Shown: positions 20,548 to 24,589 of the stretch, in pieces
How the letters are laid out: every line of letters starts with the position of its first letter
Numbering within the stretch: position 1 is the stretch's first letter
Source of the DNA: a virus
Direction: 5' to 3' (one strand)
Virus record (IMG/VR): IMGVR_UViG_3300033979_000169
Span: 1-24,589 of that record
DNA length: 24,589 bases
The notes under the pieces: model-generated
What the model saw: only the letters and a program-made list of their open reading frames with translations
The model's database searches: none
Told to the model about the DNA's origin: nothing
Made by a program: the position numbers and the translations under genes

Positions 20548-22335
20548 TTAGTCTCTATTTTTAATCTCTACTAAGGATTCTTGGGTTTTTTCGATCGCCC
20601 TGTCTAGAATCTCTCTATCCTTCTCTTCGGTGATATATCTGGATAGCTTGCTTAAAACGAACGATCTACCTTCCTTTTGGGAGTTTGGATTGTTCTCTTG
20701 AGGCTCCTGACCGCCTGCTTCTCCATAACCAGCATTTCCACCAGGAGGAGCTTGTCCAGGTTGAGGAGGTCCACCCATTCCAGGCATCATCCCTTGTTCA
20801 GCCTGTTTTTGGGCCATCTCCTCCTGTTCCTGTTCTAGTTCTGTCATTATTCTCTCAATCTCGTCTTCAGACATATCGTAATACTGTCGGTAGATTTCTT
20901 TGTTCGAGAATAATTGTAAACCCTTAACCGCCTGAATAACTCTGGTTTTTTGCTCGTCCAAGTCTAGCTTTCTCTTGGCCGACATATCAGAAGGCTCAGG
21001 GAGTTCTATTCTAAGCTCTTTGATAAGTCTTGATGGGTAGCCCTTTAATTGAAGGTGTCGTTTAGCAATATTCTCTAAACCGACCTCAACATTCATCTGG
21101 ACACGCTTAATCGCTCTGGCGAACTTAACGTCCAACTGAGACAAGTTAGCTTTACGTTCTGGGGACTTGTCCTTCTCTACTATGTAATCCTTTGGAATTT
21201 TTAACATAGCAAGAAGCTTATTTTGGAAATATCTTACGTCATCAATATCACCTAGGTTTTGAGCACCTGGTAGAGTATCAATCTTAGACGTACTTCCCTG
21301 TCTCATTGGAACGTAGAAGTCTTCATCTACGGAAGGAGGATTATATCTGGCATCTACTGTTCCCTTAGAACTATTGTAATACGCTTGTTTCTTGAAGTTT
21401 TGCTTTACTCGTTCAACATAAGCTTCAGCCTTAGAGGTTGGAAGAGCACCAGTGTCAATATAAAATATTCTACGCTCAGGGGCTCTAGAAAGACGATAAA
21501 TCATCATAGCGTCTTCCATCATTCTTAATGACCGGAAGGTACTGTGACAAGCTGCTACTATGGATTTACCGTAAGGGTAGAAGTTAGGATCTGAGGTGTG
21601 AAGTCTAAAGTGGATGATCTGATTCTTGTCTAGGTCAATATACTTAGATGGGTTCTGATCAAACGAGTTGTACCCATAATCATTATCGTCTTTAGGGATT
21701 TCCTGTAAGAACTTCTTTAAGTATCCGTACTTATTCTCTATACGGATAATGTAAGTTGGGTCTAGGACTTTAAGCTTCTTTAAACCCTGTTCTGGTTTAG
21801 TAACATCTAGAACTAGTTCTAGGAAACAATCACCGAACTTACAGGAGTTTCTTATAATGTCCCAAAGGAATCTTTCTAGCCTAATAGTTTCAAAGAGGCT
21901 TTCGACCTCTTTAACCACCATCTCGCTTTCAGACTTAATTTTCCACTTCTCGTTCTTTGGACCTCTCTGGCTAGCATCGTCAGCATAAATATCAAAAGCT
22001 GCTGCGATCTCAGGGTAGCCATCCATCTCCTCGTAATCACGATAACGCTTTCTTCTATTGTATTCCCCTTGGGCTAGAATAGCGGTTGAGCTTCTGGAAC
22101 CGGCAGCATGGCCTTCGAAAGGATCTTTATTGACCTCGGTATTGGTAATGGTATCACCACCTTCCGTGGTTGCAACACCAGTATCCATTTCCTGCTCTAG
22201 TTCTTTAGCAGCAGGAGAAGCAAAGAAGCTAGCAAAGAATCTACGAATAGGGCCAAAAAATCCAGGGGTTGTTGGGGTTGATCCAGCAAATTCCGTAAAA
22301 TTCTCGTCTAGCTTTTTATTTATTTGTTGAACCAT
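20548..22335 (-). CDS. Portal vertex protein, T4 gp20-like
   Basis: The 595-residue product is a clear gp20 homologue. It has the family stretch MDGYPEIAAAFDIYADDA (about residues 103-120), then SRAPERRIFYIDTGALP (about 278-294), and SKIDTLPGAQNLGDIDDV with the helix-rich region following (KLLAMLKIPKDYI). These are signature segments of T4-type portals, which form the 12-mer through which DNA enters and to which the neck binds. The N-terminal 70 residues and the Gln/Pro/Gly-rich tail (from about 500: MAQKQAEQGMMPGMGG) are low complexity. A strong SD (GGAGGA) lies nine bases before the ATG, within the end of the terminase gene, which overlaps by 16 bases. Terminase next to portal is the expected motor arrangement. 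Confidence 0.93.
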   Translation of the reverse strand: MVQQINKKLDENFTEFAGSTPTTPGFFGPIRRFFASFFASPAAKELEQEMDTGVATTEGGDTITNTEVNKDPFEGHAAGSRSSTAILAQGEYNRRKRYRDYEEMDGYPEIAAAFDIYADDASQRGPKNEKWKIKSESEMVVKEVESLFETIRLERFLWDIIRNSCKFGDCFLELVLDVTKPEQGLKKLKVLDPTYIIRIENKYGYLKKFLQEIPKDDNDYGYNSFDQNPSKYIDLDKNQIIHFRLHTSDPNFYPYGKSIVAACHSTFRSLRMMEDAMMIYRLSRAPERRIFYIDTGALPTSKAEAYVERVKQNFKKQAYYNSSKGTVDARYNPPSVDEDFYVPMRQGSTSKIDTLPGAQNLGDIDDVRYFQNKLLAMLKIPKDYIVEKDKSPERKANLSQLDVKFARAIKRVQMNVEVGLENIAKRHLQLKGYPSRLIKELRIELPEPSDMSAKRKLDLDEQKTRVIQAVKGLQLFSNKEIYRQYYDMSEDEIERIMTELEQEQEEMAQKQAEQGMMPGMGGPPQPGQAPPGGNAGYGEAGGQEPQENNPNSQKEGRSFVLSKLSRYITEEKDREILDRAIEKTQESLVEIKNRD

Positions 22336-23393
22336 TCAAAATCTTCCTCCAACATAACTCCATAAGTACCTTTGTTATTTACTCTTGAGATTACTGGATA
22401 ATCAGGAATTTTCAGATTTTTAGTATCAACAGAGTAATCTATCGGCGTAGAGTTCTTAACATCATTATAAACATGGATCGCAATAGCCAGGCTCATAATA
22501 AGGTCGTCGGTATATCCTTCATCAGCTTCGACCTTACCTGTATCGGTTATAATAAAAGTGGAAAGCTCATCACAAGTTCTAGTAGAGTTAATTTTAACCT
22601 TATTAGTTCTAATGGCGTCTTCCATGTTGGATAGAATAAAGTCTCTAGATTTATTGGATACTTGGAAACCAAAATCGCCTTTATCGTCCATCCATAGGTT
22701 CTCGTACTGGTGATAAGTAAAGAGCCAGTCTATAACATTGGAGCCGATTCCGTTACGTTCTACTACGACGTGGGCTAGATTGTACCGTAACCCTATTCGG
22801 TTGATGACCTCAGCAAACTCATTAACCGGGACTTTGTTACAGTAATATTCAGCTACCTGTTGGCCGTTATAAAGGTTAATAACGTGGAAGGCGGAATAAT
22901 CCTTTCCTCTTCCTAAAGCTGTATCTGCTCCAATGACGTATTGATATTGAGGCTCGGGCTGTTGCCAGATTCTTAATCTGCCCCGATCCTCTTTAATATA
23001 ATCCTCACTGGTATTGGAAGTTACTTCCTGTAGAACTTCACCATCAACATAGGTATCACCCGTACCTTGGAAAGCGCAGTTATGGTTTACAAAACTATTT
23101 CCAATATAAGAATGGGTATCTCTTACATTGATTGGGTCGAATAGTTCTATATCCTCTATACTAGGATTTATAGTTAATATCTCTTCTACGCCCTCTGAAG
23201 CTACAAGCTTATCCCCTGGGTATAGATCTTGAGCAAAAGCCCAAGTATTATCTTCTTTTAATAACTTATGGTCAAATGAACAAGTTAAAATATTCTTATC
23301 CGTAACAATCTCTAAAAACTTTGATTTTATAGTCTTTCGTATAAAATCAAAGTCTTTAAATCCTTCTTGTGTTAAAATCTGATATTTAGACAT
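22320..23393 (-). CDS. Large terminase C-terminal half: intein-C plus nuclease domain (gp17-like)
   Basis: Residues 1-105 are the C-terminal piece of a split intein, ending in the HN dipeptide before Cys106 (coordinates 23079-23393). Residues 106-357 are the C-extein: CAFQGTGDTYV, matching the linker before the gp17 nuclease domain, then VIGADTALGRGKDY (Asp157), VVVERNGIGSN (Glu212) and YTDDLIMSLA (Asp296 or Asp297), the D-E-D metal ligands of the RNase H-like terminase nuclease. Walker A and B are absent because they belong to the N-half encoded at 24030 and beyond. The ATG at 23393 overlaps the stop of the endonuclease gene by 8 bases and has no clear SD. The intact terminase should form only after protein trans-splicing with the N-half. 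Confidence 0.92.
   Translation of the reverse strand: MSKYQILTQEGFKDFDFIRKTIKSKFLEIVTDKNILTCSFDHKLLKEDNTWAFAQDLYPGDKLVASEGVEEILTINPSIEDIELFDPINVRDTHSYIGNSFVNHNCAFQGTGDTYVDGEVLQEVTSNTSEDYIKEDRGRLRIWQQPEPQYQYVIGADTALGRGKDYSAFHVINLYNGQQVAEYYCNKVPVNEFAEVINRIGLRYNLAHVVVERNGIGSNVIDWLFTYHQYENLWMDDKGDFGFQVSNKSRDFILSNMEDAIRTNKVKINSTRTCDELSTFIITDTGKVEADEGYTDDLIMSLAIAIHVYNDVKNSTPIDYSVDTKNLKIPDYPVISRVNNKGTYGVMLEEDFEWFNK
23079..23393 (-). other. Split intein C-fragment (Int-C, 105 residues)
   Basis: This fragment carries block B, seen as TCSFDHKLL (His42), the GD-L-V strand (PGDKLVAS, 59-66), block F (FDPINVRDTHSYI, 85-97) and block G (SFVNHN, ending at Asn105), followed by the nucleophilic Cys+1. It resembles my recollection of the AceL-TerL Int-C (about 104 residues), including QEGF near the start and the FDPINV stretch. 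It lacks block A, which is on Int-N. Confidence 0.9.
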
Positions 23394-24000
23394 TCCAAGT
23401 TTTTCTTGTTACTATAGCTCTAATTCCAGCAACGGTCATATTATATTCTTTATGTACTAACTTAGAGAACTGTTGTTCTTTAATAAGTAATTTACCGTTT
23501 TTACCTACAAATGGAGTAAACTCAAATTTCTCAAATCTTTCTCTAATTTCTTTTACCTGCTCTAAAGTTAGTTTAGTGTTAACTTGGACTCCCTTTCTTT
23601 CCCTAGACCATTTCTCTAAGACTTCTTTTGATAAGTAGCCAGTCTTTCCTTTATTCCAGGGAATCTTACCTTTATGTATCTTGCTCATTTTTAATTTAGT
23701 TGCGTCTGTGTGTTTATAACCTAAAGTAGTCCACAAATGGCTTTTGTATCCTCCGTGCCCAGTAGGAGTTCCATTTAATCCGTTTTTCCAAGTATCATAC
23801 AACTGGACGTAGTATTTTTCTCTTTTTAGAACATCTTCATATTCTAGTATACCCTCTTCTAAAATTTCCTTAGTAAATGTATGATCTCTAAACTTTTTAG
23901 AGTATCGGTGCTCATTCATTCTTTTATTGATTCGGGCTTTGGTAGTTATGCCTATGTAAAGTTTATTATCTGATCTTGTTAATTTATACACTACAAACAT
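23386..24000 (-). CDS. Free-standing GIY-YIG homing endonuclease with NUMOD-type DNA-binding modules
   Basis: The 204-residue protein has a GIY-YIG nuclease domain: VVYKLT (residues 3-8) and KLYIGIT (13-19) stand in for the GIY...YIG pair, followed by Arg27, His31, Glu61 in LKREKYYVQLYDT and Asn76 in the GLNGT motif. Residues 97-120 (HTDATKLKMSKIHKG) are a NUMOD3-like DNA-binding motif. The C-terminal 60 residues read as a helix-turn-helix or AP2-like tail (KLTLEQVKEIRERF, then MTVAGIRAIVTRKTW). Its likely target is an intein-less terminase allele at the same site. AGGAAGG ends 10 bases before the ATG at 24000. The gene lies exactly between the two intein fragments and is Lys-rich relative to neighbours, consistent with an invading element. 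Confidence 0.93.
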   Translation of the reverse strand: MFVVYKLTRSDNKLYIGITTKARINKRMNEHRYSKKFRDHTFTKEILEEGILEYEDVLKREKYYVQLYDTWKNGLNGTPTGHGGYKSHLWTTLGYKHTDATKLKMSKIHKGKIPWNKGKTGYLSKEVLEKWSRERKGVQVNTKLTLEQVKEIRERFEKFEFTPFVGKNGKLLIKEQQFSKLVHKEYNMTVAGIRAIVTRKTWNV

Positions 24001-24029
24001 GGTGAGTATTCCTTCCTAGGAATATATAC

Positions 24030-24589
24030 TCATCCGGCGTATAAATCTCCGATTTTTTTATTGAATATTTCTCCTGTTTCTTTATCCCTAACAGTTATTA
24101 AAGTGTTATACCCAACGCACTCATATTCGCTGAGCCACTTTTTAATAGGAATGTTCGATCGGGTAATCTCTTCCCACTCGTCAACATTAAGCCCCTTGGA
24201 CTCCATTTCCTTATAAAGGTGTTCGTATCCTGGATGTCGCTTATACTCTGGGTGATCTTGCCAACGGATGTCAATAGCATTAAAAGTGTTGGTCTTTTCA
24301 ATAGCGCCGAGATACATTTTGTGGAACCAGTTACCAACGCCGTTAACCGTTGATAAGGCGAACACTCGACCACCAGTTGAAATCGTAGGATAAGCAGCGG
24401 CCCAAATGGTATCAATATGCTCAATGAAAGCAGCTTCGTCCAGAATAAGTAAAGATCCCGCCAAACCTCGGCCAGCCTCTTTACCAGAAGCTCGGGTACG
24501 GATAACAGAGTTATTCTCTAGCTTGAAAGTATGCTTGTTGCTTTCTATGATCTTGGGTCTAAAGAACGAGGGTAGCTCATCATACATGA
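24030..24589 (-). CDS. Large terminase N-terminal half (ATPase part) ending in intein-N; 5' end outside window
   Basis: This minus-strand gene continues beyond the right edge; the visible ATG at 24587 is internal. The visible extein has Walker B LLILDEAAFIE (residues 46-56 from that Met), the coupling motif ALSTVNGVGN (77-86) and the helices leading to KKWLSEYE, as in T4 gp17. Walker A must be to the right of the window. Residue 157 (Cys) starts the 29-residue Int-N, and the gene stops after it (TGA at 24032-24030). Its product can become a working terminase only after joining to the C-half. Twenty-nine bases then lead to the endonuclease ATG at 24000. Confidence 0.92.
   Translation of the reverse strand, partial: MYDELPSFFRPKIIESNKHTFKLENNSVIRTRASGKEAGRGLAGSLLILDEAAFIEHIDTIWAAAYPTISTGGRVFALSTVNGVGNWFHKMYLGAIEKTNTFNAIDIRWQDHPEYKRHPGYEHLYKEMESKGLNVDEWEEITRSNIPIKKWLSEYECVGYNTLITVRDKETGEIFNKKIGDLYAG
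24033..24119 (-). other. Split intein N-fragment (Int-N, 29 residues)
   Basis: The fragment begins with the catalytic Cys1 and reads as intein block A (CVGYNTLITVRDKETGE, then IFNKKIGDLYAG), ending immediately before what would be block B. It is followed directly by a stop. The split is therefore between blocks A and B, unlike canonical split inteins that break near the endonuclease site between N-block B and block F. AceL-TerL, with its roughly 25-residue Int-N, is split the same way. Confidence 0.88.

What the first reader, a model, noticed from the sequence alone, without database searches (positions are those of the whole stretch)
23079..24589. Fractured large-terminase gene with an atypical split intein
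The terminase is encoded as two separate genes. The N-half (Walker B, coupling motif) ends in a 29-residue Int-N beginning with Cys1; the C-half starts with a 105-residue Int-C ending HN before Cys+1 and continues into the RNase H-like nuclease with its D-E-D residues. The split lies just after block A, so nearly the whole intein is on the C-piece. Established knowledge: fractured genes with split inteins are known from viral metagenomes, and an atypical split of this kind was described as AceL-TerL in the same protein. I infer that packaging depends on trans-splicing, that this is another member of that small class, and that it shares the AceL-TerL insertion site.
Basis: partly seen in the sequence, partly recalled or inferred. 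Interest (0 to 1): 0.9.

Follow-up and report, generated by a model that had tools for sequence, protein, structure and literature searches.

The report
Split-intein DNA-packaging gene in a phage

Summary
Window 22320-24587 (minus strand) holds a T4-type large terminase in two genes. The N-half ends in a 29-residue Int-N (24033-24119) that starts at Cys1. A 204-aa GIY-YIG/NUMOD3 homing endonuclease (HEG) follows in another frame (23386-24000). The C-half then starts with a 105-residue Int-C (23079-23393) ending HN|Cys. A second IMG/VR assembly (L002) shows the same break, with only three synonymous differences, and supplies the whole N-half. About 140 fetched relatives have the uninterrupted gene, so the element sits precisely at KWLSEYE|CAFQGTG. 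Profiles built without the window recognise the Int-N (E 1.5e-9), Int-C (1e-4) and HEG (1e-24). Contigs encoding AceL/Cat-TerL-like Int-C lie at the same terminase site with the same layout. No intron RNA was found. This is a divergent new member of the AceL-TerL class of fractured, atypically split inteins. Splicing itself is inferred. The class is not small: 133 IMG/VR stretches and 48 phage records carry relatives. Side finds: loci that lost the HEG, one contiguous copy, and three contigs whose terminase is in three pieces with two split inteins.

The parts
24030..24587 (-). TerL N-half (ATPase: Walker B SLLILDEAAF, coupling motif STVNG), cut by the window end; the whole 294-aa gene is L002:1528-2412
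24033..24119 (-). Int-N, 29 residues, Cys1; directly after N-extein ...KKWLSEYE
   Evidence: HMM built without the window: E 1.5e-9, match starts exactly at Cys1
24001..24029 (-). 29-nt spacer with Shine-Dalgarno-like AGGAAGGA before the endonuclease ATG
   Evidence: the AceL class has 28-34 nt here
23386..24000 (-). GIY-YIG + NUMOD3 homing endonuclease gene, 204 aa, out of frame with the N-half
   Evidence: full-length match to the AceL-class endonuclease profile, E 1e-24
23386..23393 (-). 8-nt overlap ATGTCTAA: start of the C-half / stop of the endonuclease
   Evidence: the same 8-nt overlap in 30 of 36 measured AceL-class loci
22320..23393 (-). TerL C-half gene, 357 aa
23079..23393 (-). Int-C, 105 residues: block B CSFDH, block F DPINVRDTHSY, C-terminal NHN
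   Evidence: PDB phmmer to CatC 6DSL and VidaL 6VGV; AceL-class profile E 1e-4
23076..23078 (-). Cys+1 codon, first C-extein residue; defines the insertion site E|C
   Evidence: uninterrupted relatives read WLQEYE|CSFLGTGDT
22320..23078 (-). C-extein: RNase H-like packaging nuclease with D-E-D residues
   Evidence: Pfam Terminase_6C and alignment to T4 gp17
20548..22335 (-). Portal protein (T4 gp20-like), next gene; shows the head-packaging context
   Evidence: Pfam Portal_T4 E 7.9e-85

Best explanation
This is a fractured terminase gene of the AceL-TerL kind. A mobile cassette made of a class 1 intein, broken after about 29 residues by a GIY-YIG homing endonuclease gene, sits exactly between Glu and Cys of the conserved WL(Q/S)EYE|C motif, at the join between the ATPase and nuclease parts of TerL. 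Shown from sequence: the three genes, the splice-site and HINT motif residues, the insertion site, the empty site in relatives, and homology of all three cassette parts to the AceL class. Inferred: the Int-N and Int-C bind each other, splice through Cys1, Cys+1 and the terminal Asn, and join the exteins into a normal ~517-aa TerL. Also inferred: the endonuclease cuts intein-free terminase genes of co-infecting phages and so spreads the cassette.
For: Two-gene layout plus endonuclease, repeated in a second assembly with only synonymous differences. Precise empty site in relatives (overall 58-62% identical in TerL, up to 72% in the N-half), with no extein residue gained or lost. Int-N profile E 1.5e-9; Int-C to CatC E 3e-6; fused profile 25.7 bits against a shuffle maximum of 12.7; endonuclease profile E 1e-24 over its full length. 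Cys1, CSxxH of block B, the block F Asp, the penultimate His, terminal Asn and Cys+1 are all kept. AceL-class contigs share site, split position, gap, 8-nt overlap and GIY-YIG enzyme. AceL-TerL and GOS-TerL splice in vitro (PMC11766414).
Against: No splicing is shown. The window's Int-C is one of the most divergent of the set (about 30-35% to the AceL class), and its place in an Int-C tree is unresolved, on a long branch.
Confidence: 0.93

Rival explanations
1. The halves work as two separate subunits (ATPase and nuclease) without splicing, and the intein pieces are relics.
For: The break falls at the border of two domains; genes-in-pieces that work unspliced are known for a phage ribonucleotide reductase (cited in PMC10448857).
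Against: All splice-site and block residues are intact in a strongly divergent intein. The only differences between the two assemblies are synonymous, although three is too few for a test. A relic would be expected to lose Cys1 or the HN end.
Confidence: 0.04
2. The gene is joined at RNA level by a group I or II intron that carries the GIY-YIG gene, as terL of phage ICP1 is spliced as RNA.
For: GIY-YIG/NUMOD3 enzymes are common in phage introns (NCBIfam calls it a group I intron endonuclease, sub-threshold); ICP1 terL is spliced as RNA (PMC10448857).
Against: No intron family at E up to 10 in Rfam over 22000-24589. The sequences flanking the endonuclease are coding and match intein Int-N and Int-C. 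The 29-nt and 8-nt borders leave no room for a ribozyme outside the ORFs.
Confidence: 0.01
3. It is an assembly or sequencing error in an ordinary cis intein with an in-frame endonuclease.
For: Metagenomic contig; other phages (Vibrio VP-1, 1.244.A) do have the endonuclease fused to Int-N.
Against: The same break is in L002; 65 AceL-class contigs have the same three-gene layout, with a conserved 8-nt overlap; cultured Providencia and Serratia phages have three genes too.
Confidence: 0.01

Closest known systems
AceL-TerL / GOS-TerL / Cat atypically split inteins
   Same: Same host protein, same E|C insertion site, same short Int-N (25-37 aa) and long Int-C (about 104 aa), Cys1/Cys+1 as in AceL, GIY-YIG gene between the halves in IMG/VR relatives
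   Different: Int-C only about 30-35% identical; sits in a different, T4-like phage clade whose nearest fetched relatives lack the intein; splicing untested
Fractured genes with split inteins (Dassa et al. 2009)
   Same: Host gene in two parts, each carrying half an intein, with a free-standing endonuclease gene between
   Different: There the new enzyme family is not GIY-YIG (from memory; the paper was not held); here it is GIY-YIG, as in AceL NrdHF (PMC7891396)
AceL NrdHF split class 3 intein
   Same: Fractured gene with a GIY-YIG gene between the halves
   Different: Class 3, canonical split (98+48 aa), in ribonucleotide reductase
Vibrio phages 1.244.A, K469 and VP-1 TerL
   Same: Same TerL site and homologous Int-C; the endonucleases of 1.244.A and K469 are the best full-length matches to the window's among phage records
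   Different: Endonuclease is fused in frame to Int-N (seen in 1.244.A and VP-1), so two ORFs rather than three
T-even phages HY03, TG1, SEA1, kaaroe TerL
   Same: Fractured TerL with a short Int-N and long Int-C
   Different: Inserted at the Walker B DEC|AF site; enzyme is TnsA/endonuclease I-like where tested (HY03, kaaroe), not GIY-YIG

Membership tests
AceL-TerL class (atypically split TerL intein) | Int-N of about 25-37 aa, Int-C of about 103-115 aa | tested here: met
   29 and 105 aa; class mostly 28-29 and 103-109
AceL-TerL class (atypically split TerL intein) | Inserted before Cys of E(F/Y)E|C-x-F in TerL | tested here: met
   Window SEYE|CAFQG; CatC-like loci VEFE|CEFLG; empty site WLQEYE|CSFLG
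AceL-TerL class (atypically split TerL intein) | Sequence homology of Int-N, Int-C and endonuclease | tested here: met
   E 1.5e-9, 1e-4 and 1e-24; fused profile 25.7 bits
AceL-TerL class (atypically split TerL intein) | Class 1 catalytic residues: Cys1, block B His, block F Asp, terminal His-Asn, Cys+1 | tested here: met
AceL-TerL class (atypically split TerL intein) | HINT fold formed by the two pieces together | tested here: inconclusive
   AF2 of window Int-C alone poor. The contiguous class member L185 gave a modest model (pLDDT 65) matching 6DSL, E 2.2e-10, but with TM 0.41 and disordered ends, and at 68% identity
AceL-TerL class (atypically split TerL intein) | Trans-splicing activity | not testable with these tools
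   Needs co-expression of the halves
Fractured gene with free-standing homing endonuclease | Host gene in two ORFs with an endonuclease ORF between | tested here: met
Fractured gene with free-standing homing endonuclease | Endonuclease cuts the intein-free allele | not testable with these tools
   Empty alleles exist; cutting not tested
Group I/II intron with GIY-YIG ORF | Ribozyme core around the ORF | tested here: not met
   No Rfam intron match in 22000-24589 at E up to 10

The most novel reading that the evidence does not exclude
The broken state is held in place by the endonuclease: the 8-nt stop/start overlap couples translation of the C-half to the endonuclease, so losing the enzyme gene would cost the phage its terminase unless a new start arises. 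The class would then show every stage of escape: split with HEG (65 contigs), split without HEG (6), and re-fused into one contiguous intein (1).
Probability: 0.25. Interest if true: 0.6.

Novelty: new member of a known kind. Interest (0 to 1): 0.42.

Why it matters
It adds a divergent natural split intein with a 29-residue Int-N, short enough to synthesise, which is what protein-labelling work uses. It also gives a clean occupied/empty pair for the same terminase site. More broadly, the comparison shows that terminases in pieces are widespread in phages, many in culture, so dependence of DNA packaging on trans-splicing and on homing can now be tested in laboratory phages rather than only with metagenomic fragments.

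Tried and rejected
RNA intron: Rfam found nothing. Sequencing error: same break in L002 and in the class. A broad Int-C alignment (A1) was too diverse to scan with. AlphaFold2 of Int-C alone gave pLDDT 49 and was not used. [quoted passage not shown] An Int-C tree left the window unplaced on a long branch, so kinship rests on the endonuclease, site and layout. An Int-N profile from AceL-class members alone missed the window; a broader one, still without the window, found it. No relative in bacterial genome contigs. Dassa 2009 was not held. Promoter and terminator scans were no better than shuffles.

Full report
What is there. The window is a fragment of a T4-like phage (IMG/VR record, 24,589 bp), with a T4-type portal gene next to the terminase. 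On the minus strand the large terminase is split in two. The N-half stops at 24030 and ends in a 29-residue Int-N that begins with Cys directly after KKWLSEYE. After 29 nt with a Shine-Dalgarno-like AGGAAGGA comes a 204-aa GIY-YIG/NUMOD3 gene (23386-24000). Its last 8 nt, ATGTCTAA, are also the start of the C-half (22320-23393), which carries a 105-residue Int-C ending NHN, then Cys+1 and the nuclease domain. The nuclease aligns to T4 gp17 with its D-E-D residues in place.

Is it real? A second IMG/VR contig, L002, holds the same three genes plus the missing start of the N-half (294 aa) and differs at 3 of 6476 positions, all synonymous. I cannot exclude that the two assemblies derive from related samples. 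Relatives give the empty site: in 78 of 79 N-half relatives the frame runs on past the site (the last was not examined further, and one search suggests it is L289, a contig that simply ends there), and portal relatives whose contigs cover the site read WLQEYE|CSFLGTGDT or close variants without a break. Over both sets, which overlap, the residue after the site is Cys in 118 contigs, Gly in 12, Ser in 9 and Ala in 8. The closest N-half relatives (about 72%) have Gly and no intein. Joining the window's exteins leaves no residue gained or lost.

Is it an intein? Int-C's best PDB hits are CatC 6DSL (E 3.2e-6), the consensus engineered from GOS-TerL and AceL-TerL, and VidaL 6VGV (6e-6). A profile of Int-N pieces made without the window matches it from exactly Cys1 with E 1.5e-9; hits not explained by other inteins of this kind stay above E 0.5. 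Concatenated Int-N+Int-C aligns end to end with the AceL-class profile (25.7 bits; best of 2000 shuffles 12.7). Cys1, CSFDH in block B, the block F Asp, HN and Cys+1 are kept. No group I or II intron was detected.

Does it belong to the AceL-TerL class? I could not retrieve the original AceL-TerL record, so CatC served as its proxy. A scan with CatC's sequence found 133 IMG/VR stretches, 80 of them fetched. All 80 sit before CEFLG, at (V/I)EFE|CEFLG wherever the N-half is present: the window's site. Their layout closely matches the window: Int-N 28-29 aa in 70 of 71, a gap of 28-34 nt, a GIY-YIG gene of 189-191 aa, an 8-nt overlap in 30 of 36 measured loci, and Int-C mostly 103 aa. A profile of their endonucleases matches the window's enzyme over its full length with E 1e-24, more strongly than any other sequence tested, whereas the Int-C match is weaker (E 1e-4). 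An Int-C tree does not resolve the window. Among 50,697 phage records, the endonuclease's best full-length matches are the ones inside TerL of Vibrio phages K469 and 1.244.A, at the same site in 1.244.A. So site, layout and enzyme all place the window in this class, as a divergent member in a phage lineage whose other sampled members lack it.

How it likely works. Inferred from the class: the short Int-N threads into the partly folded Int-C, Cys1 and Cys+1 exchange the extein, Asn cyclises, and a normal ~517-aa terminase results. AceL-TerL and GOS-TerL have been shown to splice in vitro (PMC11766414). The endonuclease presumably cuts intein-free terminase genes. The 8-nt overlap and the weak ribosome site before the C-half suggest that C-half translation is coupled to that of the endonuclease; this is a hypothesis.

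Wider picture. Phage records with homologous Int-C number 59, of which 11 are in UvsX/RecA genes and 48 in or beside terminase genes (some duplicate accessions). They include cultured Campylobacter, Escherichia, Salmonella, Yersinia, Providencia, Serratia, Vibrio, Pseudomonas and Shewanella phages, often annotated as hypothetical protein. There are several TerL sites (Walker A, just before Walker B, Walker B, and the nuclease junction) and several enzyme types at the break: GIY-YIG, TnsA/endonuclease I-like, T5orf172 and Vsr/DUF559-like. GIY-YIG in a fractured gene was already known from AceL NrdHF (PMC7891396). Of 72 AceL-class contigs where the N-half was visible, 65 are split with the endonuclease, 6 are split without it and 1 (L185) is contiguous. 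Three contigs (L147, L150, L181) have a second split intein at Walker A, so TerL there is in three polypeptides.

Verdict. New member of a known kind; splicing remains to be shown.

Noticed in passing
L147:301-2908, L150:1304-3911, L181:2135-2753: TerL in three polypeptides with two atypically split inteins (Walker A site RQTGK|C...HN|STT and the AceL site). In L147 and L150 each break carries its own endonuclease gene (Vsr/DUF559-like and GIY-YIG). The two Int-N/Int-C pairs would have to avoid cross-reaction in one protein.
   Followed up: partly
L185:3330-3707: Contiguous (re-fused) copy of the AceL-type intein, 126 aa, no endonuclease, all splice residues kept: looks like reversal of the gene fracture.
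   Followed up: partly
L188, L190 (near 3973), L199 (near 2490), L204, L207, L174: AceL-type terminases still split but with the endonuclease gene gone; where read closely, the C-half follows or overlaps the N-half stop within a few nt (L174 was only classed by script).
   Followed up: partly
L034 (Campylobacter phage CP21) 1541-5827: TerL with three inteins: contiguous at Walker A, split just before Walker B with a T5orf172 gene, and contiguous at Walker B. C-half annotation in the record starts far too late.
   Followed up: partly
L035:2178-5086 and L038:2136-5098: Providencia and Serratia phages have the split intein one codon upstream (QEH|CAEF instead of EYE|CAF), still before a Cys, with a SegE-like GIY-YIG gene.
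   Followed up: partly
L003:3441-5921: Split TerL intein at RGKAVS|CLIIDE with a GIY-YIG gene; Int-C ends in His-Gln instead of His-Asn.
   Followed up: no
L002:1528-2412: Walker A reads KFRQAGCTT, Cys where Lys is usual; the same in 138 matches among relatives, so a trait of the clade.
   Followed up: partly
L044:628-2589 and L045:1322-3538: Vibrio phages carry the endonuclease fused in frame to Int-N, an intermediate between a cis intein and a fractured gene.
   Followed up: partly
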